30,360 bases of DNA from a virus: positions 1 to 30,360 of IMG/VR virus record IMGVR_UViG_3300023233_000010; one strand, 5' to 3'. The position numbers and the translations under genes were made by a program. Below, one piece after another: positions 10,851-26,718 of the stretch. Below the pieces are notes generated by a model. It was not told where the DNA came from, searched no databases, and saw only the letters and a list, made by a program, of their open reading frames with translations. Within the stretch, counting starts at the first letter, position 1. Each line of letters begins with the position of its first letter.

Positions 10851-10888
10851 AAGATGTAAGAGATGGTCAAAGGAGAAAGAGGTGTTAG

Positions 10889-11086
10889 ATGGAAAAAGCA
10901 CAAATTGATATTGAGTGTGATGGAGAAGATTCGAATTTTACTGTGAACGGAGAAGTTATGTTCCCCCGTAATTTCCCCATTGAAGAAAACAGGGCGATGC
11001 TAATTGGGGAAATTATGTGTATGAGAAACCGTGACCTTTTAACTTTATCTCTAGAGCGGCTTATGGCCGAAAAACTGAACTACTAA
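10889..11086 (+). CDS. Hypothetical small acidic protein, 65 aa
   Basis: A 65-residue protein with AAAGGAGAAAGAGG upstream of its ATG. It begins EKAQIDIECDGEDSNFTVNG, is acidic in the first third, then has PRNFPIEENRAMLIGEIMCM and a helical end. No motif is recognised. It directly follows a 13-codon mini-frame (10847-10888) that overlaps the stop of the glycosyltransferase and ends with TAG touching this ATG, so ribosomes may be handed on. Confidence 0.55.
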   Translation: MEKAQIDIECDGEDSNFTVNGEVMFPRNFPIEENRAMLIGEIMCMRNRDLLTLSLERLMAEKLNY

Positions 11087-11106
11087 AGGCTAAAAAAGAG
11101 GACTCT

Positions 11107-11325
11107 ATGAATATAGACCGAATGATTTTACCTATTGACGACAAGGATCTCCAAAATCAGGTTAAAGTTCAATTGATTGAGGCGATTATGTCTGGTGATA
11201 TTACGGAGTGTGGCGTGAAGAATATAATTGCTGATGCCTGGGATGAAAACGAAAATAGAACGGGTAAGGCATTTACAGGGGAACAAGTTTTGAGAATTTA
11301 TATAGTGCAAAAGGAAAAAGAATGA
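11107..11325 (+). CDS. Hypothetical small protein, 72 aa
   Basis: A 72-residue protein with AAGAGGA upstream of its ATG. It is mixed helical with SDGITECGVKNI-like text in the middle (residues 29-41) and ends IVQKEKE. No motif is recognised. Its stop overlaps the ATG of the next glycosyltransferase by 4 bases (ATGA), which ties it to the cassette by translation. The function is unknown. Confidence 0.55.
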   Translation: MNIDRMILPIDDKDLQNQVKVQLIEAIMSGDITECGVKNIIADAWDENENRTGKAFTGEQVLRIYIVQKEKE

Positions 11326-12071
11326 TAATCGGAATGAAGGGCTTAAATGAATCCCGCTATGTCAAACCCGTAATCGGTGACATCCACGACGAGCCATGGG
11401 TTGACCGGATTATCGTGATCGATGGCCGCAGTTCTGATGATACGGTTCATGAGCTTCGTCAATTCGATAAGGTCGAGGTTTATTCTCACAAGTGGGAAAA
11501 ATGGTTTCACGCTCAGGAAATCATACAATCCAACATTTTGCTTCAGTATATTCCACTGGGCTCAATCTTCTTTATCTTGGACTTTGATGAACGGTGTTCT
11601 GACGACCTGAAAATGCTTCTGGCAGACATTGATGATAATGGTATGCCTGATGACATGGATTGTGTTCACGTATCCCGGAAGTCATACGAATTAATGCGAT
11701 TTGATGATTCGCCGTTTGCGATTCCGGATATGGCACGCCCCGGGTTTTGGATTACGTCTCATACCATTGGCCAGTACCCGGATTACCAGTTGCGGATTAT
11801 CCGGCGGAAGCTGGGAATGCACTGGATTAATTCCCCGCACCATATCATGTATGGAATGCAGGAGAATTTATTTACCAACAAAAACATTCAGGCGGATTTA
11901 ATTCATTACCATGGCAAAGAGGATGCCCGAGATCGGCACAATATTGAACGACAATGGCTGAGGAACCAGGCGCGGCGTAAAGAGCTTGGGCTGGAAGCGG
12001 ATATATTCGAGGGAGATCCGAGTCCTGAAATGGCGAAGTATGCAGACCCGGAGTATTTCACCAAAGACTGA
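11322..12071 (+). CDS. GT2-like glycosyltransferase
   Basis: A 249-residue GT-A enzyme of the GT2 type. It starts MIIGMKGLNESRYV (the N-E after the first strand is typical), has IIVIDGRSSDDTVHEL at 30-44, matching the D-G-S-x-D-x-T motif that binds the nucleotide sugar, and ILDFDERC at 85-92 as the metal-binding DxD (D87, D89). The rest holds QLRIIRRKLGMHWIN, where GT2 enzymes read their acceptor-side DFRLRI segment, and a HYHGKEDARDRHNIERQ helix. It would add a sugar in the cytoplasm using a nucleotide-sugar donor. Start and stop fit the overlapping gene chain. The specificity cannot be read from the sequence. Confidence 0.85.
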   Translation: MIIGMKGLNESRYVKPVIGDIHDEPWVDRIIVIDGRSSDDTVHELRQFDKVEVYSHKWEKWFHAQEIIQSNILLQYIPLGSIFFILDFDERCSDDLKMLLADIDDNGMPDDMDCVHVSRKSYELMRFDDSPFAIPDMARPGFWITSHTIGQYPDYQLRIIRRKLGMHWINSPHHIMYGMQENLFTNKNIQADLIHYHGKEDARDRHNIERQWLRNQARRKELGLEADIFEGDPSPEMAKYADPEYFTKD

Positions 12072-12133
12072 AGCGTGGTTTTAAAGGACAAGATTCACTG
12101 AGGGGAGCGACACTGGCAACACCTGGGTTTATA

Positions 12134-12328
12134 GTGAGACGTTGTGAGTATACAAACCCTGAATTTATCGAGTATTACAATAAAACTTTTAGTGAAAGAA
12201 CCATGTTGACGGAACTTGCCAGAAGAAGAAAATTGGAGGCGGAAGGGAATGCCTCGTTGATATCTTTTGAATATCGGTATAGTCTTAATTGGGAAGAATT
12301 TTTAAAGAAATATTATCCGGAGAAGTAA
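12134..12328 (+). CDS. Hypothetical small protein, GTG start, 64 aa
   Basis: A 64-residue protein read from a GTG; the frame continues open upstream to about 12074 but has no ATG, and the ribosome site is poor, so the start is uncertain. The sequence is basic and helical with SERTMLTELARRRKLEAEG and ends NWEEFLKKYYPEK. No motif is recognised. It is kept because codon spacing is regular and the next gene starts 2 bases after its stop, using the GGAG inside its end. Confidence 0.45.
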   Translation: MRRCEYTNPEFIEYYNKTFSERTMLTELARRRKLEAEGNASLISFEYRYSLNWEEFLKKYYPEK

Positions 12329-12330
12329 TC

Positions 12331-12966
12331 TTGAGTGATCTAAAAGAGCTTGCATCAAAAATAGGGGTAGAAAAGATCGGGGGATCTTCTTTGGATCAGG
12401 GTAAGTTATACCACGATATCCCTTTTATGTCCTTGCCGAGCCACAGGAAGAATACCAGGTTGAGGGTAGATAGAATCCTGATGGAGATTGACGTAAAGGG
12501 CAAGAAAGGTCTCGACTTGGGTTGTTCGGCCGGTGGGATAACCTTTCGCCTGCAAGCTGCCGGGGCAAGTATGACTGGGATTGATTACGATAAGGCCATG
12601 ATAAACCTTGCGACGGCAATAGGGAACAAATTTAAAACCAGTGCCAAATTCGTTCATTCGATTATCAATAAGGAGTTGATATCCGGATTAGAACAATATG
12701 GCTTCATTGTTTGGTTCGATCAGTGGATGTGGTTGTTAAAGCAGGCGGGAGAAGATGCGTATGAATGTATCTCGATTGTGTCACAAAAGACAAATTGCCT
12801 GTTCTTCTCAACCACACAGGGCGATGCTATGGCAAAGAGCGCCAATATATCGTCAAGTCAAGATGTGTTCAATATTCTAAAAGACAATACCGATTATCAA
12901 ATTGATGATCTCGGGACAGTAAAGGACGGCTGGTATCCACGAAATATTTTCAGGTGTTATAGATGA
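12331..12966 (+). CDS. SAM-dependent methyltransferase
   Basis: A 211-residue class I methyltransferase. I choose TTG 12331 because CCGGAGAAG lies 5 bases upstream; the frame extends to another TTG at 12289 without a ribosome site. Motif I is GLDLGCSAGG at about residues 60-69, followed by GASMTGIDYDKAMINLA, where the Asp at the end of the second strand binds the ribose of S-adenosylmethionine. Later strands are GFIVWFDQWMWLL and NCLFFSTTQGDA. Placed between glycosyltransferases and a kinase-like gene, it may methylate a sugar or glycan end, a common capping step in surface polysaccharides; this is inference. The stop overlaps the next start (ATGA). Confidence 0.8.
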   Translation: MSDLKELASKIGVEKIGGSSLDQGKLYHDIPFMSLPSHRKNTRLRVDRILMEIDVKGKKGLDLGCSAGGITFRLQAAGASMTGIDYDKAMINLATAIGNKFKTSAKFVHSIINKELISGLEQYGFIVWFDQWMWLLKQAGEDAYECISIVSQKTNCLFFSTTQGDAMAKSANISSSQDVFNILKDNTDYQIDDLGTVKDGWYPRNIFRCYR

Positions 12967-13448
12967 GAGGGAATACCGCAAGGATTGAACTATTAGAGGG
13001 GAACATATTGAAAACTATTGACCTTAATTCCTCTACAACCAAGCTGATAAACTCGTTCTTGAGGCCACACTACCCAGGTGATATTGAGCCGATTGTGGCA
13101 CATGAAGTCAAGGCATTAGAGATATTGGCTAAATATGATATATCGCCTATTGTCAAGAAATACGGCAAGGATTTCATTGTGATGTCCTATGTGGGGGAAG
13201 AAGCGAAAAGTGTTTCGGCCGAACAGGTTAACCATATTGTAAGTACTTTAACTAAGGCCGATATCGTTCACAATGATCTGGTGTTTAACGAGGAGCTTAG
13301 AAATATTACGATTCTTAATGGCAGGGTTTACCTGATCGATTTTCAATTAGCATCCATGTCTGGCATACCGTCTGTTAAAGATATCCGGAAAGCATTCTGG
13401 CGACCAAATTATGAGAGTGACGAAAAACAATTAAGGGAAATGATATGA
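12963..13448 (+). CDS. Minimal Bud32/RIO-like kinase
   Basis: A 161-residue protein with the core of a kinase fold. K17 in EGNILKTIDL matches the ATP-binding Lys, E48 in AHEVKALEIL the helix-C Glu, then a hinge-like FIVMSYVGEE (71-80). Residues 101-117 read IVHNDLVFNEELRNITI, matching the catalytic H-x-D with a later Asn but with a few extra residues between, and VYLIDFQLAS (122-131) matches the metal-binding DFG as DFQ. Size and lack of a glycine loop recall Bud32, RIO and WaaP sugar kinases. Among glycosyltransferases it may phosphorylate a sugar or glycan, or a protein; this is unknown. Both ends overlap neighbours by 4 bases. Confidence 0.7.
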   Translation: MRGNTARIELLEGNILKTIDLNSSTTKLINSFLRPHYPGDIEPIVAHEVKALEILAKYDISPIVKKYGKDFIVMSYVGEEAKSVSAEQVNHIVSTLTKADIVHNDLVFNEELRNITILNGRVYLIDFQLASMSGIPSVKDIRKAFWRPNYESDEKQLREMI

Positions 13449-14017
13449 CAGAAAGACTGTTTATTGAAACTGTAATCCCATACGAGCCATGCAAGAAAGT
13501 AGGCTTTGCGTATAACCGGGCCATGGAACACGCAAATGATTGGGTTCTGATAATGGATCATGATTTGTTTTTATGTAACCCAAACTGGTACGAGGCGTTT
13601 TTGGCGGCAGCAACAAGACTTGGCCACCAAGCAGGTTGGATAACTGCCGTCACTAACCGCTGCGCGTCCGGATCTCAAAAGTCTCTCGGGTGTCCGGAAG
13701 GAAGTGATGATTTAATCGACCATATTAGATGGGCGGAGAAGGTTTGGAAAGAGCATGGGACAGCTACCGTAGAAGGTGGTGGTTGTGACAATGGTCATAT
13801 GATCCTGACACACAAGGGGGCATGGGAAGATGCAGGCGGGTTTAACCAAGCAAAGGGAATGCACTGTGACGGTGATTATTTCAAAAGAATCATCAAGGCT
13901 GGGTACAAGGCGTATTACATGCCTGGAAACTATGTTTACCACCTTCAAGACCGGAAATATCAGGTTTGGAAATGGCACAAATGGAAGGACTATGGCCATG
14001 AATGGAGGGTGTTATGA
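13445..14017 (+). CDS. Short GT2-like glycosyltransferase
   Basis: A 190-residue GT-A protein. YNRAMEHANDWVLIMDHDLFL (residues 23-43) carries the DxD as D38-H39-D40. GGFNQAKGMHCDGDYFKRII includes the usual acceptor-side Asp pair, followed by AGYKAYYMPGNYVYHLQ, the final strand of many GT2 enzymes. The normal first strand and the D-G-S-x-D-x-T donor site are missing: the protein begins about where the second strand should lie, so it is shorter than the family's usual 230-300. It may be a truncated enzyme or need a partner in the cassette. The ATG overlaps the kinase-like gene's stop. Confidence 0.7.
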   Translation: MTERLFIETVIPYEPCKKVGFAYNRAMEHANDWVLIMDHDLFLCNPNWYEAFLAAATRLGHQAGWITAVTNRCASGSQKSLGCPEGSDDLIDHIRWAEKVWKEHGTATVEGGGCDNGHMILTHKGAWEDAGGFNQAKGMHCDGDYFKRIIKAGYKAYYMPGNYVYHLQDRKYQVWKWHKWKDYGHEWRVL

Positions 14018-14328
14018 GTGTTGTCTATGTGTGTAAAATGTGCGGCCGTTCGATGCGGGCTGAAGAAAAACCAGCGTGTTGTTATTTTGATCACATGGAC
14101 GCAATTGAAAACATCAGTGACGAGGATGCGGTCAAGATGGGGCTTAATATCCCAGAGGGCGAAATCTTTGAGTTCCCTGGGGATGTGAGGTGGGACCCGG
14201 TGACGGGAGAACCTGCCATGGTTACGCTCAAGAAGATTGAAACTGGATCAGGGTGGCCGAAACTTGTAGTGGAAGGTCGAACGCTTAGGCAGTTCCAGGA
14301 CGCGATTATGGTGGAGGTGCGGGCGTGA
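14014..14328 (+). CDS. Hypothetical protein with zinc-binding-like N-terminus
   Basis: A 104-residue protein. ATG 14014 is chosen because GGAGG lies 5 bases upstream and it overlaps the previous stop as ATGA; ATG 14002 is also in frame. The N-terminus VVYVCKMCGRSMRAEEKPAC (then C) has a CxxC and a CC pair, which could bind one zinc. The rest has a DAVKMGLNIPEGEIFEFPGD section and a beta-rich end. There is no known family that I can name. It sits between two glycosyltransferases and is coupled to both. Confidence 0.6.
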   Translation: MSVVYVCKMCGRSMRAEEKPACCYFDHMDAIENISDEDAVKMGLNIPEGEIFEFPGDVRWDPVTGEPAMVTLKKIETGSGWPKLVVEGRTLRQFQDAIMVEVRA

Positions 14329-15164
14329 TTAGCATCGCTATAAATCTCGACACGCGCCCCGGATTCATGGAGCAGTCCACAAAACAGGGGACCATGCTCA
14401 ACGGGACCCGTTCACTTGACTTCTTTACCGAGGGTATAATCAACAAGGTCAAATTCTTCGAAGGCCATGAGATCGAAACGACTGTGTTTATTGATGTCCA
14501 TGATCCGCTCCCAAAGGAAACGCAGGATTGGCTACTAAACCAACAGGCAAATGGGATTATAGACAATCTGGTGTTCAACCGGCATACGGAGAAGTATTTG
14601 GGAGCGTTTGAACCGAAATGGAATGATATTAACTTTTTGAATGCCATAGTATTGACAAGGGGTGACTACCTCGTTCATTTTGATGGAGATATGAATGCCT
14701 TCATTAATGACAAAAATGTAATTAAGGAATGGCTTCAGTGGCTTGATGAGGAGCGGTTTGATTATATCAGTTATCCAAGTCAATATTCCCCGATGCCTGC
14801 AACGGATGGACGGTATAAATCGTATTGGTGGGCCTCGACAAGATTTTTTCTCTGCAAGCGAAAGATTATCGACTATACGGAAATTGTCAAATGCCTGCGG
14901 AGTTCAGAATATCTTTACGGAAAATACGGGACCGAAGGCGAACCAAAAAACCCATGGCTTGAACATATCTTAGGGCTTATGACCAGTGGGCAGAACCGGG
15001 TGTTTTATCCACCGATACAATCTCAGCGATATTTAATCTTCGCATGGTCCAGTTACCTCTCAGGGGTATTGAAACAACTCAACGAATGGCCTTATAAGAA
15101 GGTCATCGAATATATCAATCATATCAGCTACCCATGTGATTGCGCGGCAAAGGAGTTGAAATGA
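14325..15164 (+). CDS. GT-A fold glycosyltransferase with DGD motif
   Basis: A 279-residue enzyme read from GTG 14325, which overlaps the previous stop and has GGTGGAGGTG upstream. It starts ISIAINLDTRPG, a strand typical of glycosyltransferases, has ETTVFIDVHDPLP (51-63) in the donor half and DYLVHFDGDMNAF at 114-126 with the metal-binding D120-G-D122. The second half includes WWASTRFFLCKRKIIDY and a long C-terminal helical part. No retaining/inverting class can be told with certainty; GT2-like is the best guess. It likely works with the neighbouring GT4 and GT8 enzymes on the same glycan. Confidence 0.75.
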   Translation: MISIAINLDTRPGFMEQSTKQGTMLNGTRSLDFFTEGIINKVKFFEGHEIETTVFIDVHDPLPKETQDWLLNQQANGIIDNLVFNRHTEKYLGAFEPKWNDINFLNAIVLTRGDYLVHFDGDMNAFINDKNVIKEWLQWLDEERFDYISYPSQYSPMPATDGRYKSYWWASTRFFLCKRKIIDYTEIVKCLRSSEYLYGKYGTEGEPKNPWLEHILGLMTSGQNRVFYPPIQSQRYLIFAWSSYLSGVLKQLNEWPYKKVIEYINHISYPCDCAAKELK

Positions 15165-16237
15165 AAATTATCCTAACAGGGAATTCTTTTCCATTTGGCG
15201 AGGGTCACGCATACGGGGGTGAACGTATTTTAGGCTATCTTACTCAAGAGTTGATTAAGCTCGGCCACGAAGTCTATCTTTTTGCCCGGGAAGGCACAAA
15301 CGTTTCTGAAGCCACGGATTATATCCCAATAGGTCCGCTTTGTGATGATAGAGATGTCCATTACGAAGCGGTAAAAGAATACGTTGCCAAGACTGGCATA
15401 GAACCTGACATTTATTTCTGCGGATATTTCGGAAAGGGAGACCAGGGAGCATTAGAGCGATGGCCCTACGTGGAACTTATTTGGTGCAGATGGTCTCACG
15501 CAAAATTTGAATTTCCGAAGGTCAAGCCGTTCAATGTTGTGTCATATTCCAATTTATTACAACAGGATATGATTGACAGTGGTGTTCCCACCACCATGAT
15601 TCATTACGGTCTCCCGAAGGATTTATACAAATTCCAACCTGACAAGGAAGATTACGCTGTCTGGATTGCAAAGGCTGAAGGTGGTAAGGCTCCCAGGCTT
15701 GGGGCTGAATTGGCAAGAGCGGCAGGCCTGAAATTGGTATTTATGTGTCCTCCTTACAATACTGGGGTAATGTGGGATCAGGTGCTTCCCTATGTGGACA
15801 ACAAGAATATCTTTTGGGTCCGTGGTGTAGATGATCAAATGAAATATGAGATCATGAGCAAGGCAAAGGTTTTTTTATACACGAACTCAAACGAATGGCG
15901 CGAACACGCAGGGATTGTTTTACTTGAAAGCCTTGCCATGGGAACCCCTGTAGTGGGGATGAACCGCATCAATCAAGATTGCGCTATTGTAACCGACAAA
16001 ATCATCGAGCACGGCAAGCACGGATTTATCCTGAATTATTACGATTCGAATAACTTGTCTGAAATTCTCAGCGTGGGTGTCCCGCTTATTAATCGAATTC
16101 ACGAGATCGATCCGATTGACTGCCGGGAGCAGTTTGAAAAGCGATTTACCGCTGATTTAATGGCCAGGCGGTACGAATGGTTATTTGAGAGAGTGGCCTC
16201 GGGCGAACGATTTGGGACGGTGGAGGTGCCGTTTTGA
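15161..16237 (+). CDS. GT4-like glycosyltransferase
   Basis: A 358-residue GT-B enzyme. ATG 15161 overlaps the previous stop (ATGA) with AAGGAG upstream; an upstream start at 15140 would overlap more and has no ribosome site. It begins MKIILTGNSFPFGEGHAYGG, includes the Gly-rich acceptor loop YGGERILGYL and the phrase LGHEVYLFAREG common to GT4 enzymes. EHAGIVLLESLAMGTPVVGM (248-267) is the E-x7-E donor site (E248, E256). It is a complete GT4 of normal length, probably a retaining enzyme using a nucleotide sugar. Its substrate is unknown. Confidence 0.85.
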   Translation: MKIILTGNSFPFGEGHAYGGERILGYLTQELIKLGHEVYLFAREGTNVSEATDYIPIGPLCDDRDVHYEAVKEYVAKTGIEPDIYFCGYFGKGDQGALERWPYVELIWCRWSHAKFEFPKVKPFNVVSYSNLLQQDMIDSGVPTTMIHYGLPKDLYKFQPDKEDYAVWIAKAEGGKAPRLGAELARAAGLKLVFMCPPYNTGVMWDQVLPYVDNKNIFWVRGVDDQMKYEIMSKAKVFLYTNSNEWREHAGIVLLESLAMGTPVVGMNRINQDCAIVTDKIIEHGKHGFILNYYDSNNLSEILSVGVPLINRIHEIDPIDCREQFEKRFTADLMARRYEWLFERVASGERFGTVEVPF

Positions 16238-16404
16238 TTTATGATGCTCAAATAGAAACCCAGCCAATGGGCCTGACCCACAAATTGCCATTGAATTTTA
16301 TCGAAAAGAATTGGAGGACGGATCATGAAAATAGCATTTGCAACAACGGTAACAAGAAATTATTTACCATACTTGAGGGCATTGCTGAACAGCATAAAAA
16401 TTAA
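16234..16404 (+). CDS. Possible small protein, TTG start, 56 aa
   Basis: A possible 56-codon gene starting at a TTG that overlaps the GT4 stop as TTGA, with GGAGGTG about 6 bases upstream. It reads IYDAQIETQPMGLTHKLPLN, then FIEKNWRTD, before running for 80 bases into the GT8 gene in another frame. It fills the otherwise empty 87-base gap. The good ribosome site speaks for it, the long overlap and lack of any motif against. Treat as doubtful. Confidence 0.3.
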   Translation: MIYDAQIETQPMGLTHKLPLNFIEKNWRTDHENSICNNGNKKLFTILEGIAEQHKN

Positions 16405-17035
16405 TAGCCCTTCGGTCGCAGGCACCCCGTTCATCTGTTTTACCGGAACTAACGATACGGCAGAAATCAAAAAAAAGGAATCTGCCCTGAGTTGGAAAGA
16501 AAAGCAACAGCTTAAAGAGCTGTATCCCTCGGTTGAATTTAAGACCGTAGACGTGTCCAAGTATGTAGCTACTTCAAAGTTAACCCCTATTTTCTGGCGA
16601 ATGGAAGTCTTTAATCTGCGCGGATACGACAAGGTGATATTCATCGATGCGGACATGATCTGCTTAAAGGATATCTCCGGACTTTTGAACATCGAGTGTG
16701 ATATTGGAACCACAGAGCAAACCAAGGGTTGGAAGGATTGGAATTGGGGATTATTCATTGTTGGCAGGAAGTACCTGAATTCCAAGACTTATAAATGGTT
16801 GCTTGATGCGAAACATGATCAGACAAAGCCAGCGGAACCCATGCACCTTTTTACGAAGCTGTTCGGGAAGGAGCTTTACGAGATCCCGCAGAAATACAAC
16901 AGGATCGTTCCGCAGTTGAGTGTTGCTAAAATGTTTGATAATGAAATGATACATTACATTTACAAGCCTCTCACGAAACTTGAAGGCCATATTAAACCGG
17001 AGTATCTGGAGTTATGGAAAAAGTACAGCGTCTAA
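16325..17035 (+). CDS. GT8-like glycosyltransferase
   Basis: A 236-residue GT-A enzyme of the GT8 (glycogenin/galactosyltransferase LgtC) type, with GGAGGACG before the ATG. The opening MKIAFATTVTRNYLPYLRAL matches the first strand, and YDKVIFIDADMICLKDISGL (101-120) is the hallmark GT8 DxD segment (D108-A-D110). Later, WNWGLFIVGRKYLNSKTY corresponds to the family's FNSGVMVxxP step, and IHYIYKPLTKLEGHIKP holds the final His-x-x-G/KPW-like motif. Enzymes of this group add glucose or galactose while keeping the anomeric form. The acceptor is unknown. Confidence 0.85.
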   Translation: MKIAFATTVTRNYLPYLRALLNSIKINSPSVAGTPFICFTGTNDTAEIKKKESALSWKEKQQLKELYPSVEFKTVDVSKYVATSKLTPIFWRMEVFNLRGYDKVIFIDADMICLKDISGLLNIECDIGTTEQTKGWKDWNWGLFIVGRKYLNSKTYKWLLDAKHDQTKPAEPMHLFTKLFGKELYEIPQKYNRIVPQLSVAKMFDNEMIHYIYKPLTKLEGHIKPEYLELWKKYSV

Positions 17036-17045
17036 TGGTGCATAA

Positions 17046-18251
17046 ATGAAGCCTGATATCACACTGATATTCTCATCCAGCCCATTTCTTCTTGACCAGT
17101 CGGTATTTCCGCCCTTGGGAATTCTATATCTATCAGCGTTTTTGAAACAATTTGACTTAAAAACCCAGTGTCTTGATATGGGACTTGGCCATACACCGGA
17201 CATGGTGGAATCGGATGTTGTTGGGATTTCGTTTACCTCACCTCAACGGTTAGAGGCGTTTGGGTTGGCAAACAAGTTCAACCACATGGGTAAACAGGTC
17301 ATTGCCGGGGGTCCTCACGCTACACATAAACCTCAAGAGTGTCTTGGACGTGGCTTTACCCATGTGGTTCGGGGGCAGGGTGAGACAGGGCTGATGTTGT
17401 TTTTGTCTCAGATATTGAAAATGAATTTCAACGTACCGCTACAAATAGATATTGACGACATTCCTTTTCCTGACCGGGACGCATTACCAATACGCGATTA
17501 TCATTATGAAATTGAGGGTATTCCGGCTACGCCTATTATGACCACCCGGGGATGTCCATTCCATTGTGCTTTCTGTGCCAAGATAAATGATGACTTTCAG
17601 ATTCAGTCTACTGAGCGAACCATTGCAGAGATTGAGCACGTTCACGACAAATACGGATACAAAGCCTTTATGATATTTGACGATGTGTTTATTGCCAGCA
17701 AAAAGCGGCTTGGTAGAATAGTTGATCAAATTGGCGGGAAATATCTTTTCAGGTGTTTTGCCAGGAGCAACCTGCTTGACGATAAAGTATGTGAATTACT
17801 CAGTAAGCTCGGGGTTGTGGAAGTTGGTATAGGCATTGAAAGTGGATCTAATGATGTGCTTGAAAGAAACATGAAGGGGACTACCCGCAAAATGAATACC
17901 CGGGCCGTTGAGAGACTTCACAATCATGGCATTCGTGCGAAAGCGTTTTTAATTGTCGGGCTCCCCGGGGAAACAAATGAAACAGTGGTTGAAACTGCCG
18001 ATTGGATTGAAGAAGTACGTCCGGATGATATCGACATTTCGATTTTTCAACCAATGCCTGGTTCAAGGATCTTCGCTGATCCTGCCAAGTGGGGAATTAA
18101 ATTCAACTATAATGGCCAGCCAGGTTGGTATAAGGGTACGCCAGGTCAATACGAAGCAAATATCGAGACAGAGGAACTTAATGCTGAGGAAATTGTTGCG
18201 TGGCGAGACATGCTTGAACTTGAATATAAACCGAGAGAACTTTTGAGATGA
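17046..18251 (+). CDS. B12-type radical SAM enzyme
   Basis: A 401-residue protein with an N-terminal cobalamin-binding-like domain (about 1-130) and a radical SAM domain. The first part has FPPLGILYLSAFLKQ, DVVGISFTSPQRLEAFGLA and VIAGGPHATHKPQECL, all standard for BchE/Elp3-like class B enzymes; the DxHxxG that coordinates B12 is not evident. TTRGCPFHCAFC at 166-177 is the [4Fe-4S] CxxxCxxC site (C170, C174, C177). VEVGIGIESGSNDVLERNMK and AKAFLIVGLPGET follow in the expected order. Class B enzymes often methylate unreactive carbons or phosphorus; here it may modify a sugar or virion protein. This gene is rarely seen in phage late regions. The stop overlaps the next start. Confidence 0.85.
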   Translation: MKPDITLIFSSSPFLLDQSVFPPLGILYLSAFLKQFDLKTQCLDMGLGHTPDMVESDVVGISFTSPQRLEAFGLANKFNHMGKQVIAGGPHATHKPQECLGRGFTHVVRGQGETGLMLFLSQILKMNFNVPLQIDIDDIPFPDRDALPIRDYHYEIEGIPATPIMTTRGCPFHCAFCAKINDDFQIQSTERTIAEIEHVHDKYGYKAFMIFDDVFIASKKRLGRIVDQIGGKYLFRCFARSNLLDDKVCELLSKLGVVEVGIGIESGSNDVLERNMKGTTRKMNTRAVERLHNHGIRAKAFLIVGLPGETNETVVETADWIEEVRPDDIDISIFQPMPGSRIFADPAKWGIKFNYNGQPGWYKGTPGQYEANIETEELNAEEIVAWRDMLELEYKPRELLR

Positions 18252-18418
18252 TGATCTGGGTTTGTCCAAAATGTCATTATAAAAATGAAATCGAAGATGA
18301 CAAACTTGATGATTATTGGTGTGAGAATTGCGGGCGGACAATGGAAAAGGTAACAAGAGTTGAATGGGAAATTAAACCAACCACCTTTATGCCGCCCGAT
18401 CCGAGGCATATATGTTGA
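18248..18418 (+). CDS. Small zinc-ribbon protein, 56 aa
   Basis: A 56-residue gene beginning with ATGATG and overlapping the radical SAM stop. It has two knuckles: WVCPKCHYKN near residues 4-13 and YWCENCGRTM at 23-32, a classic zinc ribbon. The C-terminal part (VEWEIKPTTFMPPDPRH) is proline-rich. The product may bind nucleic acid or simply brace a complex; no target is known. Its stop overlaps the next ATG by 7 bases, as is usual in this chain of genes. Confidence 0.65.
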   Translation: MMIWVCPKCHYKNEIEDDKLDDYWCENCGRTMEKVTRVEWEIKPTTFMPPDPRHIC

Positions 18419-18798
18419 CACTATTTGTTGTTCAAAGTAGGGCAGATAAATTGGATTCAGCATTGGTGGTAAAATCATTTGAGGGATTAGCTGATGAAAT
18501 TCATTTCGTGCCAAACATTCAGAGCATTAACGATAAAGCTAAGAAGAACGAATGGTATGCTGTGATCTACGATGATGAATATATTGATGAGCCGCTTAAA
18601 GAAGGGCTGAAGGTATTTATTGAGCAAAGTGAGGTGGATGTGTTGGTATTGGGAAAACAGTCAAAGGATAAATTCTTTAAAGCGCCCAGGTTATTTCGAC
18701 GCGCTGTTCAATTGGAGGAAGATTCGCTTATTCCTGTCAGGGCCGATTTAATGTTTGAAACCGTATTGAACGGGTGGGTTTATGATAACAATAATTAG
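18412..18798 (+). CDS. Hypothetical protein, possibly a reduced GT-A fold
   Basis: A 128-residue alpha/beta protein. It starts MLTLFVVQSRADKLDSALVV with a strand-helix like the start of a GT-A fold, has NEWYAVIYDDEYIDEPLKEG (46-65), where YDDEY could stand in for a DxD, and DVLVLGKQSKDKFFKAPRLF, then RRAVQLEEDSLIP, resembling the acceptor half of small glycosyltransferases. At half the normal length, it would be a remnant or a minimal form. The call is weak. It is coupled to the zinc-ribbon gene upstream. Confidence 0.55.
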   Translation: MLTLFVVQSRADKLDSALVVKSFEGLADEIHFVPNIQSINDKAKKNEWYAVIYDDEYIDEPLKEGLKVFIEQSEVDVLVLGKQSKDKFFKAPRLFRRAVQLEEDSLIPVRADLMFETVLNGWVYDNNN

Positions 18799-18807
18799 GA
18801 GGGAAAG

Positions 18808-19332
18808 ATGGTAAGCCGAAGAGGTTTCTTGAAAGTAGCTGGCGGCACAGCAGCCTTGGCAGTTGTTAATCCTTTTAAGGCATTCGCTGGGTTTATTCCT
18901 GATGATATCAAAGAGGGTGAAAATGTATTTTCGTTGGGTTTAGGCAATGTTTGTATTGGCAGTGCCATTGCAAATCTTCATGAAAAAGATATTTGTTTAA
19001 AGAAAACTGGATTGGCAACGATAAAAATTCGGACCTTTACTGATTTCAATAAACCAATGAATGGTTTCCCAACAGCTAACGATTTTCAAGTTTCTATGTC
19101 TTCTGAAATAGTAGCCGAGTGTTTCTTTAAAAAGGAGCCGAATATATTTGGGAGTGTCGGGCGTGTAGAAGTTGTTGTTATGTATCCAGATGGCCACAAT
19201 TTTATGGCGATAATCTTCCCAAAAGCCCGAATGACAAGAAAGAAGGATATGTTTGTCTTTACATCTATTCCCGTGAAACACGAAACATGGAAAGATATGC
19301 CCCTTGGACGATTTTATTGGGATCGAAAATGA
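18808..19332 (+). CDS. Tat-exported protein resembling the tail tube protein
   Basis: A 174-residue protein with AGGAGGG before the ATG. Its N-terminus is a textbook Tat signal: SRRGFLKVAGG with R4-R5, a hydrophobic stretch TAALAVV, and a likely cut after A25-F-A27. The mature part follows the phage's own tail tube protein (21216-21800) segment by segment: SLGLGNVCIGSAIANL versus ALGLAQIRVGSSSDNI, NGFP versus SGFP, AECFF versus LECAF, VMYPDGHNFMAIIFPKA versus YTYPDQSSTMIIIFPRA, and PLGRFYWD versus ALGHILWA. The pair are therefore likely paralogs, one given a secretion signal. A folded copy outside the cytoplasm has no known role. The Tat call is firm; the homology is by eye. Confidence 0.75.
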   Translation: MVSRRGFLKVAGGTAALAVVNPFKAFAGFIPDDIKEGENVFSLGLGNVCIGSAIANLHEKDICLKKTGLATIKIRTFTDFNKPMNGFPTANDFQVSMSSEIVAECFFKKEPNIFGSVGRVEVVVMYPDGHNFMAIIFPKARMTRKKDMFVFTSIPVKHETWKDMPLGRFYWDRK

Positions 19333-19850
19333 TAACAATCAAATTTAAAGAAGCGGATTTCCAGCGATACATGAGGGCGCTTACGAAACTTCAGCAGAGT
19401 GTAAAGCTGTTTGGCCAGGATGAAATGCAACGGCGGTGCGCGGTGGATTATTTTCAGCTACTTGTGAATAATATTAAAAAAAGGTACTTTCCACGACCTG
19501 CATACTCAATACGATATAGAAGCTGGAAGTATGAATATGGCTGGCAAGGCTATCCGTCTCCGTGGCGATTAAGGGGGGACCTGGTAGGCAGTCTGTCTGC
19601 GTTTAGGGCGCCTGATGGAAAGAGCTGGATTGGTGGGGTCCCGATAGGGGCAATGGACTCAGGAGGTAAGTCATGGTTTGGAAAGGGTTCAAAAGGGCCG
19701 AGCGGTGGTTCAAAATCAATAGCTATGTACGGATCTATTGAAGAGAAAAGAAGGCCGGTGTTTGGACCGACCGCAAGCGAGTATGCTGGGGCAGGCTGGT
19801 CGAAGCGTGGGCAGGAAGCGTTAAATAATCTAAGAAAGGCGTGGGCATAA
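19329..19850 (+). CDS. Tail completion protein (HK97 gp10-like)
   Basis: A 173-residue protein starting at ATG 19329, which overlaps the preceding stop (ATGA). The frame extends upstream to 19287, but that would overlap more and has no site. The N-terminal helices KEADFQRYMRALTKLQQSVK and QRRCAVDYFQLLVNNIKKRY, followed by the P-rich PAYSIRYRSWKYEYGW and SPWRLRGDLVGSL, look like phage minor tail/tail-completion proteins (HK97 gp10, lambda Z function), where a helix pair is followed by WKPL/LRGDL-like text. It connects head and tail. It is the first gene of the tail module after the cassette. Confidence 0.65.
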   Translation: MITIKFKEADFQRYMRALTKLQQSVKLFGQDEMQRRCAVDYFQLLVNNIKKRYFPRPAYSIRYRSWKYEYGWQGYPSPWRLRGDLVGSLSAFRAPDGKSWIGGVPIGAMDSGGKSWFGKGSKGPSGGSKSIAMYGSIEEKRRPVFGPTASEYAGAGWSKRGQEALNNLRKAWA

Positions 19851-21215: not shown

Positions 21216-21800
21216 ATGGCAAGATCAGGTCCCGTAGCGACAGATACGACAACTATTGCGCTTGGATTGGCGCAAATACGAGTTGGTAGTTCGTCTGACA
21301 ATATTACCAAACCTGGAGCTGAACTGTCTTCCAGTGATTCGATTGGAGCCTTGGCGAATACTAAGTTCACCGGGAATACCGATTGGTACAAACTGGAATC
21401 AGGCTTTCCTCTAATTGAGGATTATACCACGCCTATCAGGGAAGGAGCTATGCTGGAGTGTGCGTTTAAGGAGATCACTCCGGAGCACATGGCTCTGGCT
21501 CATGGTGATGACATCAGTGGAGGTGGATATGATGTCCATTCTGGTGAGGTTACGTTAGGTAGCCGATCTGCTCCCGATTACGTGCGGATGGAAGCGGTAT
21601 ACACTTATCCTGACCAGTCAAGCACTATGATCATTATCTTCCCGAGGGCGCAGGTGTCAGCGAACGTGGAGATGGATTTGCAGTCTGAGACTGCTGCTGC
21701 TGTTCCGATTACATTTGAGTCCAAGAATGCGTCAAGTGACGTTACGGACGGCGATGCAATTTGGGATGACAAAGCCCTTGGTCATATCCTTTGGGCATAA
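21216..21800 (+). CDS. Major tail tube protein
   Basis: The 194-residue tail tube subunit; AAAGGAG before its ATG is among the strongest sites in the tail region. It is beta-rich with ALGLAQIRVGSSSDNI near the start, WYKLESGFPLIEDYTTP in the middle, MLECAFKEITPEHMALAHG, RMEAVYTYPDQSSTMIIIFP, and a final DKALGHILWA. This arrangement is standard for phage tail tube proteins: an N-terminal strand, a helix after E-I-T-P-E, and a paired final sheet. It lies just before the chaperone and tape measure genes, as lambda V does. It shares several segments with the Tat-signal protein at 18808. Confidence 0.8.
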   Translation: MARSGPVATDTTTIALGLAQIRVGSSSDNITKPGAELSSSDSIGALANTKFTGNTDWYKLESGFPLIEDYTTPIREGAMLECAFKEITPEHMALAHGDDISGGGYDVHSGEVTLGSRSAPDYVRMEAVYTYPDQSSTMIIIFPRAQVSANVEMDLQSETAAAVPITFESKNASSDVTDGDAIWDDKALGHILWA

Positions 21801-21856: not shown

Positions 21857-22339
21857 ATGTCGGAGAATGAACAGAAAAAGATTAATCCGCAAATCACGGA
21901 GATCGAGATCGGTATCCGTGAAATGCGGAAGATTAAAATTTATCCCTTGTCCATGTCGGATCAGTTAAAGCTGACTGGTTTAATATCCACGGCAGTTGCG
22001 GCGCAGGTTGCCAAAGAAGAAGGTGGGGACATAGCTATAGTGGCGTTTATTGTGGAATTAGTGAAGGAAAACCTTGGACGTATCCTAACTATGGTAACGG
22101 GAGAGGATGACAAATTATTGGAAGAGGTTTCCAATCTTCAGGCGGCTGCAATATCCGAAGTGGTTTATGAGATGAATTACGGCATTGTAGTAAAAAACTT
22201 CAAGAGCCTCTTCGAGAAAGTGATGACGCTGTTTCCATCGGAGAGGCCGTTACCGCAGTTTGCGAGCGATACGGATACCGAATTGACGACTTCTACAGAA
22301 AATCCTTCAGAGACGGAGGAGTTACCTTTGGACAGTTGA
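21857..22339 (+). CDS. Tail assembly chaperone, short form (gpG-like)
   Basis: A 160-residue protein with AAGGAG before its ATG and located between the tail tube and the tape measure gene, the place of lambda G. It starts ENEQKKINPQITEIEIG and is mainly helical, with IYPLSMSDQLKLTGLIS and ILTMVTGEDDKLLEEVS, as in tail chaperones that hold the tape measure protein before tube assembly. A slippery heptamer at 22192-22198 lies inside the gene and sends some ribosomes to another frame, so this frame gives the main, short product. The frame after the slip site continues 46 codons, ending with an acidic, low-complexity stretch. Confidence 0.8.
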   Translation: MSENEQKKINPQITEIEIGIREMRKIKIYPLSMSDQLKLTGLISTAVAAQVAKEEGGDIAIVAFIVELVKENLGRILTMVTGEDDKLLEEVSNLQAAAISEVVYEMNYGIVVKNFKSLFEKVMTLFPSERPLPQFASDTDTELTTSTENPSETEELPLDS

Positions 22340-22602: not shown

Positions 22603-25600
22603 ATGGCTGATAAAACATTGACACTTGGAACGTTGTTTTCGGCAGATGCTAAAGATTTGTTGGCGGTTTTGAAAAGGGTCAAGACCCAAATAAATATGAT
22701 TGCGACTGCGGCAAAACAGTTGCAAACCTCTATGGGTGCGATGAATAATGCGGTCAAAACTGGCGCATCAGGAATGTCCGGTTATGCTTTAGCAACTAAG
22801 TCTACAGTGGCATCCATAAAGGGTGCTGTTGGGGAATCCTCAAAGTTTAAGCAAGCCCTTAGTCAATTGAATTCAGTGGCAGCTAAAACAAAAACTGGAT
22901 TCGATGCGGCTCACTCCACATTAATGAAGGTTGAAAAAGCCATTCATGCTACTGGCCAAAGAATGACAGCAGCAGGAAAAAATGGCCAAGGTTTTGTTAA
23001 TACTGCAAATCGTATGGCATTGGTTAACCAAACGCTTACCGGAAAACTCAAAGCAACTTCTGCAGGATTTCAGCAGGTTGGCACACAAACAGTAAAAGCC
23101 TCCACCGCAACTAAAAAAGCCACAGAGCAATACGCTGGCTTTACTAAACAAATATCTCGGGTTCATGGTGGCCTTGAGCGCGTCAAAGCGGCGTTCAAGG
23201 TTACAGCGTCCTACGGTATTGCAGCCACAGCGATTTATGCGGTTGTAACCGCTTTTAAAACGGGCGTCCAAGCTATGATTGATTATGATCAGGGGTTGAA
23301 GAATCTCCAAGCCATTACTGGGGCAACGGATGCTGAAGTGATGGCCATGGGAGAGACCATTAAGACCGTTGCGAGAGATACTAAATTTTCAACATCTGAA
23401 GTAGCAGAAGGAATGACGTTATTGGGCCAGGCCGGTTTTGACGCTGGTGAGTCTATGGCCGCCATGCACGATACCGCAATGTTGGCCACCGGAACCTTGT
23501 CTGACATGAAACTCACAACCGACCTTGTAACTACTACAGTTAGGGCGTTTGGATTGCAAGCCACTGATTCTGGGCGCGTTGTAGATGTTATGGCGAATGC
23601 TATCAATAAATCAAAACTCACCATTGATAAACTAAGAATTGCATTTAATTATATTGGTGCCACTGCCGCGCAAGCTGGACTAAGTATTGAGCAGGTTGCC
23701 GCAACCGCCATGAATTTTGCTAATAGTGGTCTTAGAGCCTCCACAATTGGAACAGGGTTCAGGCAAGTCCTAAGTAAACTTTTAAAGCCAAGTGAGAGAT
23801 TGAGTAATGCGTTAGCAGCGGTGGGGTTAAACCTGGATGATGTGAACCCTAAGATGGTTGGGTGGCAGGGGTCGCTTAATGCTCTTACAAATATCCTTTA
23901 TGATTCAGAGACCAAAACAGTGGATATGGCCAAGGCGTTTAGTCTATTTGGTTTACGTGGTGCTCAGGCAGCGGCAGTCATTGTCTCATCCTTTGTTTCC
24001 GGGAAGTATCAAGATGCGTTGAATAAGGTTTATGAACTTGGAACTGCTGAGGAAATGGCAGCAAAACAAGCTGAAGGGCTTGGTATTAAAATCAAGAACT
24101 TGGTTGATAGGGCTAAGAATGTCGCTGTTGCTTTTGGTGAGGCTGGGGCCGCTAATGCATTAAAACTCTTTATTGATGGTTTAAGGGGGGTTGTGGTTGG
24201 AATTGAAACCTTTGCGGGGGCAATTGCAGGGCAGGCCATAATTCAGTTGGCAGCTTTAACTGGGGCATTGAAAGTAGCACAGATAGCGGCAGCTTTTCTT
24301 TATTCAACACTTATGAAGTTTACTGCAATCCAAGCTGTTGTTATGACTTTCAGGGGATTGGCCACGACTCTTTCTGGAAAGACCGGTCTCGTGGGGGGCT
24401 TGGCTACTGCGGGGCTTTATCTAAAGGGTTTCCTTGCTGCATTAGGTCCACTTAAAATTATATTATTAGCAATTACAGGGGCATTTTTGGCTTATCGAAA
24501 TGCTATGCAGGCATCCGTGAAGGAAGTTGAACTGAATGCTGTCAAGTATATGCAACTTGTTAATTCACTTAAAGCATTTGGCGGAGCGTTAGAGACAACA
24601 GGCCAGAGGGCTATAAGATTTAAAGATGATACCTTTCAAGGCAATGCTACGAACCAAGCATATTTAGCCACGTTGCAGAGATTGATTAAAGCACACCCTG
24701 AGTTGGCAGATAAAATTCAGCTTACTATTGATGCTTACAAAGAAAACAATAGAGTACTAAAAGAATTTGCCAGTGAAGCTCATCTATCAAAGGTGGAAGC
24801 GTTAGTTCAATTACATAGAGAATATGGTGAGGCTGCTGAAGATGCAAAACTTTGGGCTGGGGTGTGGGAAGAAGTTAAACTCCAACTTTCCGCTGTATGG
24901 GATGGAATCAAATGGGTAGGTAATGAGATTGACAGATTAAATGACAAGGTAGGGGACCTTAAGTCCTCTTTTGCCGGTTGGTTGGCAGATGTTGCTGAAG
25001 CACATATTCCGGTAGTGGGCAAGATGTTAAGTAAGATGTTCCGAATTTTAGAGGAAGGCTGGAGAAAAAGTTCAAAAGCTGTGGCTAAATATTTTAAATC
25101 GTTTGGTGAAGGAACTACTGAAGTTGAAAAGTTTAGCAAAAAACAAAAGGAGGTTATAGACAGCATTGCAAATGGTTACTTAACTCTTAAAGAAAAAACT
25201 AAGCTGTCATATTTTGAAATTTTACATGAATTACAGGCTATGACAGTTGAAGGTAAAAAGTTAAGCCATGAACTTGTATTTGCAATTTTGGAAGCTATCA
25301 CAAAAGGTCAGGAAGCGATAAGTACATGGGTTAAAACACATGGGGAAGCTGTGCAATCAATGACAGAGACTTGGTTGACGTATTATAGAAAACAGGACCT
25401 CATGGGTCAGTTTGATCTCCAGAAGAAGAAAGCCTCCTTGGAAAGCTCGGCTAAAAAATTAAAGGAGTTCTTACAGGGTAAACTTGGAGACGAAGAAGAT
25501 GCTCAAAAAAAGATAAATACTGTAATGACGAAATGGTGGAATATGCAGTTACGTGAGTATATTGCCATGCTCGACAAAAAGGATGCTAAATCCCAAAGTA

Positions 25601-26718
25601 GTGAACAAAAACTTATGGATATGATAGATAACGGTCTTGCGAAACAACAGAGCGTTTACGTAAAAATTGAACATGATCGCCAAAAGATGTTGAAAGTGTA
25701 TGCCTGGACGGAAGCCCAAAAGGACAAAATAAACCAATTTTATAATAACAAGAGGGATGCCGCAAATGCAAAAGAAGAAAAAAAGGCAGAGGAACGCCAT
25801 GCTAAATATCTAAAAGAAACTGGAAGGGCTGCGGAAATAAATTTAGCAGATCTTGATCGTGAATTTAAAGAACGTGAAGATTTGGAAGAAGACTTAACTG
25901 ACAAAATCAAGCAAATGACCCTCTCAACCAAGGATTACAAATTAGGGGCTCTTGACGAAGAAATCGATAAAATTAAAGAGAATTACACCATTACTCAAGA
26001 ATTGTTAGAATTACTTAATGAATATCGTACAGCCTCTGTCCGGAAGATCCAGGAAGGTGCTACCAAATGGGTAGAAATTACCAAAAAAACCCGCAGGTTG
26101 ATCCAGACTGAATTCGGTGATCTATTCGGTAGTATTCTTCAAGGCGAAGTTAAATCCTTTGGTGACTTCCTGCTTGATTATTGGAAGGCAATGGCCAATT
26201 CTCTCGGAGACATTCTTGCCGAGGCCCTTGTAAATAGTGTGTTTGGGAAACAAAAGGATAAGGGTATTTCGTTCGGAGACATATTTGAAGGGATAATGGG
26301 AATGTTTGGCGGTGGTGGCGGAGGTGTAGGTGTAGAAAGTGGTGGCTTTGACCCAGGAGGGTATTACGGTCAATGGCACAAAGGCGGTATTGTAGGCGTG
26401 AGCCCTGCCCCTGTACGAGCCGTAGACCCCATGGCCTTTATAAACGCTAAACGATATCATAGCGGTCTTGCTTCGGACGAGATCCCGGCAATTCTTCAAA
26501 AAGGTGAACAGGTTATTCCAAAAGGCCAAGCCCAACAGTCCCAGCCGGCCCAACAGTCCCAGGCACCACAACAAACATACAATATTAATATTCAAGCCGT
26601 TGATGCAAAGTCTTTCACGGAATTGGCAAGACGTAACCCCCAGGCAATTATTGGGCCATTCAAGGATGCGTGGAAGGCCGGTAGTGACGTAAGAGATTTA
26701 ATCCGCTCCACAATTTAA
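22603..26718 (+). CDS. Tape measure protein (TP901 type)
   Basis: The 1371-residue tape measure protein sets tail length; at about 0.15 nm per residue it predicts a tail near 200 nm. The first 190 residues are helical. The TP901 core covers about 195-480 and contains AMIDYDQGLKNLQAITGATD, TKFSTSEVAEGMTLLGQAGF and NYIGATAAQAGLSIEQVAAT. A hydrophobic part follows at about 520-640 (IILLAITGAFLAYRNAM), which may insert into the host membrane during DNA delivery, and long charged coiled coils fill about 700-1200. The C-terminus has a Gly-rich loop near 1235 (FGGGGGGVGVESGG), DEIPAILQKGEQVIPKG and a Gln-rich stretch, as in many tape measures. Confidence 0.93.
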   Translation: MADKTLTLGTLFSADAKDLLAVLKRVKTQINMIATAAKQLQTSMGAMNNAVKTGASGMSGYALATKSTVASIKGAVGESSKFKQALSQLNSVAAKTKTGFDAAHSTLMKVEKAIHATGQRMTAAGKNGQGFVNTANRMALVNQTLTGKLKATSAGFQQVGTQTVKASTATKKATEQYAGFTKQISRVHGGLERVKAAFKVTASYGIAATAIYAVVTAFKTGVQAMIDYDQGLKNLQAITGATDAEVMAMGETIKTVARDTKFSTSEVAEGMTLLGQAGFDAGESMAAMHDTAMLATGTLSDMKLTTDLVTTTVRAFGLQATDSGRVVDVMANAINKSKLTIDKLRIAFNYIGATAAQAGLSIEQVAATAMNFANSGLRASTIGTGFRQVLSKLLKPSERLSNALAAVGLNLDDVNPKMVGWQGSLNALTNILYDSETKTVDMAKAFSLFGLRGAQAAAVIVSSFVSGKYQDALNKVYELGTAEEMAAKQAEGLGIKIKNLVDRAKNVAVAFGEAGAANALKLFIDGLRGVVVGIETFAGAIAGQAIIQLAALTGALKVAQIAAAFLYSTLMKFTAIQAVVMTFRGLATTLSGKTGLVGGLATAGLYLKGFLAALGPLKIILLAITGAFLAYRNAMQASVKEVELNAVKYMQLVNSLKAFGGALETTGQRAIRFKDDTFQGNATNQAYLATLQRLIKAHPELADKIQLTIDAYKENNRVLKEFASEAHLSKVEALVQLHREYGEAAEDAKLWAGVWEEVKLQLSAVWDGIKWVGNEIDRLNDKVGDLKSSFAGWLADVAEAHIPVVGKMLSKMFRILEEGWRKSSKAVAKYFKSFGEGTTEVEKFSKKQKEVIDSIANGYLTLKEKTKLSYFEILHELQAMTVEGKKLSHELVFAILEAITKGQEAISTWVKTHGEAVQSMTETWLTYYRKQDLMGQFDLQKKKASLESSAKKLKEFLQGKLGDEEDAQKKINTVMTKWWNMQLREYIAMLDKKDAKSQSSEQKLMDMIDNGLAKQQSVYVKIEHDRQKMLKVYAWTEAQKDKINQFYNNKRDAANAKEEKKAEERHAKYLKETGRAAEINLADLDREFKEREDLEEDLTDKIKQMTLSTKDYKLGALDEEIDKIKENYTITQELLELLNEYRTASVRKIQEGATKWVEITKKTRRLIQTEFGDLFGSILQGEVKSFGDFLLDYWKAMANSLGDILAEALVNSVFGKQKDKGISFGDIFEGIMGMFGGGGGGVGVESGGFDPGGYYGQWHKGGIVGVSPAPVRAVDPMAFINAKRYHSGLASDEIPAILQKGEQVIPKGQAQQSQPAQQSQAPQQTYNINIQAVDAKSFTELARRNPQAIIGPFKDAWKAGSDVRDLIRSTI

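What the first reader, a model, noticed from the sequence alone, without database searches (positions are those of the whole stretch)
18808..19332. Tail tube-like protein carrying a twin-arginine (Tat) export signal
SRRGFLK followed by a mild hydrophobic stretch and an AFA cut site is a full Tat signal. The rest matches the phage's own tail tube protein in at least five ordered segments. Phage tail proteins assemble in the cytoplasm, so a folded tube-like protein sent across the membrane has no known use. It could block incoming tails in the periplasm, cover the cell surface, or act as an accessory that receives the cassette's glycan. This is potentially a new kind of phage exclusion or envelope factor.
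Basis: partly seen in the sequence, partly recalled or inferred. Interest (0 to 1): 0.78.

Follow-up and report, generated by a model that had tools for sequence, protein, structure and literature searches.

The report
Exported tail-tube look-alike in a phage
One phage lineage carries an extra gene that joins a shortened copy of the phage's tail-tube protein to a bacterial export tag, so a virus building block seems to be sent out of the cytoplasm, perhaps to stop rival phages injecting their DNA.

Summary
The 174-aa ORF at 18808-19332 has a strong ribosome site and a twin-arginine signal that passes NCBIfam's cut-off. Its mature part is homologous to the phage's own tail tube protein at 21216-21800 (BLASTP 1e-12; TTP profile 44 bits, against at most 7.9 in 2000 shuffles). 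It is a trimmed tube subunit: the strands and 14 of 36 invariant tube residues remain, but the N-terminal arm, the helix plus long loop, and part of the C-terminal segment are gone. It is also basic (pI 8.8), whereas the TTP is acidic (4.4).

The gene is a clean 547-bp insertion between two neck genes that abut or overlap in relatives, flanked by an 11-bp repeat found nowhere else in the window. The nearest relative (TTP 91% identical) lacks it. It occurs in only five near-identical records. None of 37 other family contigs has a Tat-tagged protein over the cut-off, and I found no homologue in annotated phages, plasmids or 791 sampled bacterial genomes.

Best reading: a horizontally acquired moron encoding a Tat-exported, non-polymerising tube paralogue, most likely a periplasmic superinfection-exclusion factor acting on the incoming tube or tape-measure conduit. 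Export and function are inferred. The glycan-acceptor idea is disfavoured.

The parts
18808..19332 (+). Tat-tagged, shortened tail-tube paralogue (174 aa)
   Evidence: ORF; TIGR01409 over cut-off; homology to TTP
18797..18802 (+). ribosome-binding site AGGAGG, 5 nt before the start codon
   Evidence: read directly from sequence
18808..18888 (+). Tat signal peptide coding part, residues 1-27, S-R-R-G-F-L-K motif and AFA|G predicted cleavage
   Evidence: TIGR01409 19.2 bits against cut-off 16.7, residues 2-27; Pfam TAT_signal 2.4e-4, just under its cut-off; low hydrophobicity h-region; cleavage site by inspection
18889..19329 (+). mature tube-like domain, 147 aa, lacking the TTP helix and long loop
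   Evidence: alignment A1; AlphaFold model, core pLDDT mostly about 80-90, mean 68
18782..18792 (+). left copy of 11-bp direct repeat ATGATAACAAT flanking the insertion
   Evidence: only two exact + strand copies in the 30-kb window; single copy at the empty junction of L011
19329..19339 (+). right copy of 11-bp direct repeat; also the start of the downstream gene (ATGA overlap with the stop of the Tat gene)
18412..18798 (+). conserved gene upstream of the insertion (neck or joining region), present in most relatives
   Evidence: synteny
19329..19850 (+). conserved gene downstream (probable head-tail joining protein); directly follows 18412-18798 in relatives
   Evidence: synteny
21216..21800 (+). 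the phage's own tail tube protein (194 aa)
   Evidence: PHROG 476 major tail protein 9.6e-4; Foldseek to solved tail tubes, E to 1.2e-5

Best explanation
A horizontally acquired single-gene insertion (moron) in the structural operon encodes a tail-tube paralogue cut down to its core and fused to a Tat signal. It is translated with the late genes, folds in the cytoplasm, is exported by the host Tat system and is released in the periplasm after cleavage at AFA|G. There, a soluble tube-like subunit that has lost the elements expected to be needed for ring stacking most likely binds what a tube subunit normally binds, namely the tape measure protein or the end of the tube of an incoming related siphophage. 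This would block the trans-periplasm DNA conduit and exclude superinfection, or keep progeny from wasting genomes in dying cells and debris. Shown here: the gene, the signal motif, the homology, the trimming, and the insertion into an ancestral gene junction. Inferred: export, cleavage, target and exclusion.
For: Intact ORF with AGGAGG and ATGA coupling to the next gene. TIGR01409 over cut-off. Only Tat-tagged protein over the cut-off in 39 family records. TTP homology: BLASTP 1e-12, TTP profile, shuffle control. 16 of 36 invariant TTP columns match; two of these fall by chance inside the signal, so 14 lie in the tube domain. The TTP positions absent from it are the N-terminal arm, the helix and long loop, and part of the C-terminal segment. 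Mature pI 8.8 against 4.4 for the TTP. Insertion between 18412-18798 and 19329-19850, which directly abut or overlap in L011, L012, L014, L016 and most others. 11-bp repeat ATGATAACAAT with exactly two + strand copies in the window and one at the empty site of L011. Long branch (3.98 against a median of 0.24), so not a recent copy of the resident TTP. Precedents: TP-J34 Ltp sits outside the membrane and acts on the tape measure protein (PMC3952083). [quoted passage not shown] T4 Spackle is a periplasmic protein that binds an incoming tail component (PMC7677548).
Against: No functional data. The gene is carried by one lineage only, identical in all five records, so selection on the protein cannot be measured. 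It lies in the late operon with no convincing promoter of its own, whereas T4 Spackle is an early product and Ltp is expressed from the prophage. The AlphaFold model is moderate (mean pLDDT 68) and its PDB matches are individually weak (best E 0.04). The host is unknown, so the presence of a Tat system is assumed.
Confidence: 0.42

Rival explanations
1. Tat-exported protein, but used for something other than exclusion: a lysogenic-conversion or envelope factor of the host, or a helper late in infection.
For: The signal is good. The 51-kb sister contig has a tyrosine recombinase, so lysogeny is possible. The TTP fold is a simple beta-sandwich that can be re-used for binding. The basic mature surface (pI 8.8) might bind polyanions of the envelope.
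Against: No enzymatic or envelope family is found in the mature part beyond chance-level hits. It sits in the late operon without its own promoter, unlike typical conversion genes.
Confidence: 0.2
2. The Tat-like N-terminus is not used and the protein is a cytoplasmic accessory tail or neck part, for example a tube-end or joining subunit.
For: It lies between neck genes. L030 carries another TTP-like paralogue of similar length (173 aa) without a signal, just after the tape-measure gene. Foldseek hits include neck and terminator proteins.
Against: A complete Tat signal (RR motif, mild h-region, lysine before AFA, strong start) passes a curated cut-off and is the only one over it in 39 records. 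Relatives build tails without this gene.
Confidence: 0.15
3. Dominant-negative or decoy in the cytoplasm: it co-assembles with a competitor's tube protein, perhaps dragging it out through Tat (hitch-hiking), or it distracts immune sensors that recognise tail tubes, such as DSR2.
For: DSR2-type defences sense tail tube proteins (PMC11087589), and the TTP model matches the DSR2-activating SPR tube. The protein is diverged from the resident TTP, so it might spare it.
Against: A decoy needs no Tat signal, and export removes it from the cytoplasm. The helix and loop of real TTPs are missing.
Confidence: 0.1
4. A recent chance fusion of a Tat signal with a stray tube-gene fragment, with no function.
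For: Single lineage, no homologues, no polymorphism to test selection, GC3 33% against 46% for the TTP.
Against: The mature part is far diverged from all TTPs yet keeps an open frame, the beta core and 14 of 36 invariant tube residues, which implies a long history as a constrained protein. Ribosome site and coupling to the next gene are intact.
Confidence: 0.1
5. Acceptor of the glycan made by the cassette at 8826-18251.
For: Physical proximity only.
Against: The gene is outside the cassette, beyond a conserved neck gene, and relatives that keep cassette genes lack it (L011, L012, L014, L016).
Confidence: 0.03

Closest known systems
Siphophage tail tube proteins (Foldseek matches: 9jgh, DSR2-bound SPR tube 8ygc, Bxb1, HFTV1, SPP1 6yeg)
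   Same: sequence homology to the resident TTP; strand order and core residues (GFP, R-E...YPDG, FPKA, W...LG)
   Different: Tat signal in place of the N-terminal arm; no helix or long loop; shortened C-terminal segment; basic instead of acidic; separate gene beside a normal TTP
Ltp of phage TP-J34 (superinfection-exclusion lipoprotein acting on the tape measure protein; PMC3952083)
   Same: phage-encoded, exported single gene proposed as a moron; proposed target is the incoming tape-measure conduit
   Different: Ltp is a lipid-anchored repeat protein, prophage-expressed from the lysogeny module, and not a tail-tube relative
T4 Spackle (PMC7677548)
   Same: periplasmic phage protein that binds a component of an incoming tail
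   Different: early gene; inhibits the tail lysozyme domain of gp5; not known to derive from a tail structural gene (own knowledge)
HK97 gp15 / P22 SieA (PMC10883804)
   Same: block DNA entry at the envelope; [quoted passage not shown]
   Different: inner-membrane proteins (predicted for gp15); no tube fold known (own knowledge)

Membership tests
Tat (twin-arginine) substrates | S/T-R-R-x-F-L-K motif, mild h-region, A-x-A cleavage | tested here: met
   TIGR01409 19.2 bits over cut-off 16.7; Pfam TAT_signal 2.4e-4 but just under its cut-off; hydropathy; AFA by inspection
Tat (twin-arginine) substrates | TatC-dependent export and cleavage | not testable with these tools
   needs cell fractionation
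Tail tube protein family of this phage group | sequence homology to the group profile | tested here: met
   E 8e-12 with a profile that excludes it; shuffle control
Tail tube protein family of this phage group | complete set of elements: N-terminal RxGP arm, helix plus long loop, full C-terminal segment | tested here: not met
   helix, loop, RxGP arm and part of the C-terminal segment absent in alignment and model
Tail tube protein family of this phage group | position between tail terminator and assembly chaperone | tested here: not met
   that place is held by 21216-21800; this gene lies between neck genes
Phage moron | extra gene inserted between genes that adjoin in relatives | tested here: met
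Phage moron | own promoter and terminator | tested here: not met
   the only close upstream promoter-like match leaves no room for the ribosome site; no + strand terminator found. So it is moron-like by insertion, but not a classical moron with its own transcription unit
Superinfection exclusion factor | lowers infection by related phages when expressed | not testable with these tools
   needs a plating or DNA-entry assay
Superinfection exclusion factor | located in the envelope or periplasm | tested here: inconclusive
   predicted from the signal only

The most novel reading that the evidence does not exclude
A phage has turned a tail tube subunit into a soluble periplasmic inhibitor: by fusing it to a Tat signal and deleting the polymerisation elements, it exports a pre-folded monomer that caps the tube or grabs the tape measure protein of incoming related phages. 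This would be a superinfection-exclusion mechanism built from a virion part and depending on Tat because the domain must fold before export.
Probability: 0.3. Interest if true: 0.85.

Novelty: new variant of a known kind. Interest (0 to 1): 0.58.

Why it matters
Four literature searches returned no report of a Tat-exported tail tube homologue (open-access library only). If it works as an exclusion factor it would show that virion parts can be recycled as exported antagonists of competitors, give a ready handle on what the tube and tape measure do in the periplasm during siphophage DNA entry, and add a phage-derived substrate to the Tat repertoire. It is testable with one gene in a laboratory strain.

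Tried and rejected
Start downstream of the signal: rejected, because AGGAGG lies at the right distance before ATG 18808 and the next in-frame ATG is at residue 84. Chance similarity to the TTP: rejected by a 2000-shuffle control. Chance Tat motif: in ORFs of 80 aa or more from all loci, 11 of 2298 match a loose RR pattern, and by eye only this one has a full signal layout; only this gene passes TIGR01409 in 39 records. Recent duplication of the resident TTP: rejected, 24% identity and branch length 3.98. Glycan acceptor of the cassette: disfavoured. Searches that found nothing: phages and plasmids by tblastn; 395 and 396 genomes of two phyla (the screen was weak, since even true TTP relatives scored only about E 0.002); PDB by sequence profile; relatives of L030's second TTP-like gene. 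The genome-contig scan gave TTP relatives only in metagenome bins with conflicting organism labels, so the host is unresolved. Papers that hold 'tail tube protein' or 'phage-encoded' together with Tat terms do not, by title and abstract, concern such a protein.

Full report
OBSERVATION. The ORF at 18808-19332 (+) encodes 174 residues. It starts at an ATG 5 nt after AGGAGG, and its stop overlaps the ATG of the next gene (ATGA at 19329). The first 27 residues, MVSRRGFLKVAGGTAALAVVNPFKAFA, pass the curated cut-off of NCBIfam TIGR01409 (19.2 against 16.7 bits). They hit Pfam TAT_signal at E 2.4e-4, just under that model's cut-off. The h-region is only mildly hydrophobic, and a lysine stands before AFA, as expected for Tat rather than Sec. 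Among 39 related phage records this is the only TIGR01409 match over cut-off.

HOMOLOGY. Residues 39-171 align to the phage's own tail tube protein, 21216-21800, in ordered blocks (BLASTP 1e-12): LGLGN.CIGS, LA..K....TDF.K..NGFP..NDF, ECFFK, RVEVVVMYPDG.NFMAIIFPKARM, W.DMPLGRFYW. A profile of 22 TTPs made without it recovers it at E 8e-12 from an ORF database in which the only other non-TTP hit is one more paralogue, in L030. The real mature sequence scores 44.3 bits and the best of 2000 shuffles 7.9. The resident TTP is identified by PHROG 476, gene order before chaperone and tape measure, and Foldseek to solved tubes with E down to 1.2e-5 despite a low-confidence model. The model of the Tat protein (mean pLDDT 68, core strands mostly about 80-90) gives weak PDB hits that are mostly tube, neck and tail proteins, and better hits to predicted viral tail proteins (best E 2.3e-4).

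WHAT IS MISSING. Compared with 13 aligned TTPs the Tat protein lacks the N-terminal RxGP arm, the helix and long loop between residues 86 and 120 of the TTP, and part of the C-terminal segment. Of 36 invariant TTP columns 16 match; two of those fall in the signal peptide by chance, so 14 matches lie in the tube domain. From general knowledge of tube structures, arms and loops of this kind serve ring stacking and neighbour contacts, so I infer a monomer or small ring rather than a tube. The mature domain is basic (pI 8.8) while the TTP is acidic (4.4).

INSERTION. In most relatives with both genes the upstream gene (18412-18798) and the downstream gene (19329-19850) abut or overlap. In the closest relative L011/L040 (TTP 91% identical) they overlap and no extra gene is present. 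In the window the junction sequence ATGATAACAAT is present twice, at 18782 and 19329, and nowhere else on the + strand. At the empty site it is present once. The insertion of 547 bp therefore preserved both neighbours. GC3 of the insert is 33% against 46% for the TTP, and the branch of the Tat protein is 3.98 against a median of 0.24, so it is an acquired, old paralogue and not a local duplicate.

DISTRIBUTION. Only four other contigs carry it, all 100% identical in the protein, with no substitution in the gene although the neighbouring TTP, chaperone and tape-measure genes vary. The IMG sample numbers (3300022864, 3300022868, 3300022890, 3300025736) suggest, from memory only, Ace Lake in Antarctica; this was not verified. 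All 38 related records searched have a TTP; only G001 has this second copy, and G019 (L030's record) has a different TTP-like gene after the tape measure, without signal. No match in annotated phages, plasmids or 791 sampled genomes. The 51-kb sister contig encodes a tyrosine recombinase, sliding clamp, ParB-like protein, AAA ATPase and ligase, so a temperate life style is possible but not shown.

MECHANISM. Tat exports folded proteins (established knowledge), so a folded tube domain with a Tat signal should reach the periplasm. [quoted passage not shown] Ltp of TP-J34 acts on the tape measure protein from outside the membrane (PMC3952083). T4 Spackle is a periplasmic protein that inactivates a tail component of incoming phage (PMC7677548). 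A tube-like monomer in the periplasm could bind the same partners and block entry. This is the best reading (0.42), with an unrelated envelope role (0.20), an unused signal (0.15), a cytoplasmic decoy or hitch-hiker (0.10), a functionless fusion (0.10) and a glycan acceptor (0.03) as rivals. Late-operon expression without its own promoter is the main awkward point; it would fit protection of progeny or late exclusion better than prophage immunity.

VERDICT. Observation confirmed; interpretation partly supported. An unusual and well-defined single-lineage feature, with function inferred.

Noticed in passing
window 8826-18251: Cassette of glycosyltransferases, methyltransferase, kinase-like and B12-binding radical SAM genes inserted between neck genes; many cassette genes are kept but with variable content in L011, L012, L014, L016 and L020, and no cassette gene was detected at this place in L023 or L027.
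   Followed up: partly
L030:13997-14520: A second tail-tube-like gene (173 aa, no signal) directly after the tape measure gene; no relatives found in viral contigs.
   Followed up: partly
L034, L035, L036 (and L102, L110) TTP genes: TTPs carry an insertion of roughly 100 aa at the loop after residue 103, the loop that the Tat paralogue has deleted.
   Followed up: no
L023, L026, L027, L028 TTP C-termini: Thr/Ser-rich low-complexity tails (TTTTTTTTT) at the end of the tail tube protein.
   Followed up: no
window 21952-22135, 23328-23535 and 26004-26076: Tight clusters of substitutions between near-identical contigs in the tail chaperone and tape measure genes, suggesting local recombination.
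   Followed up: no
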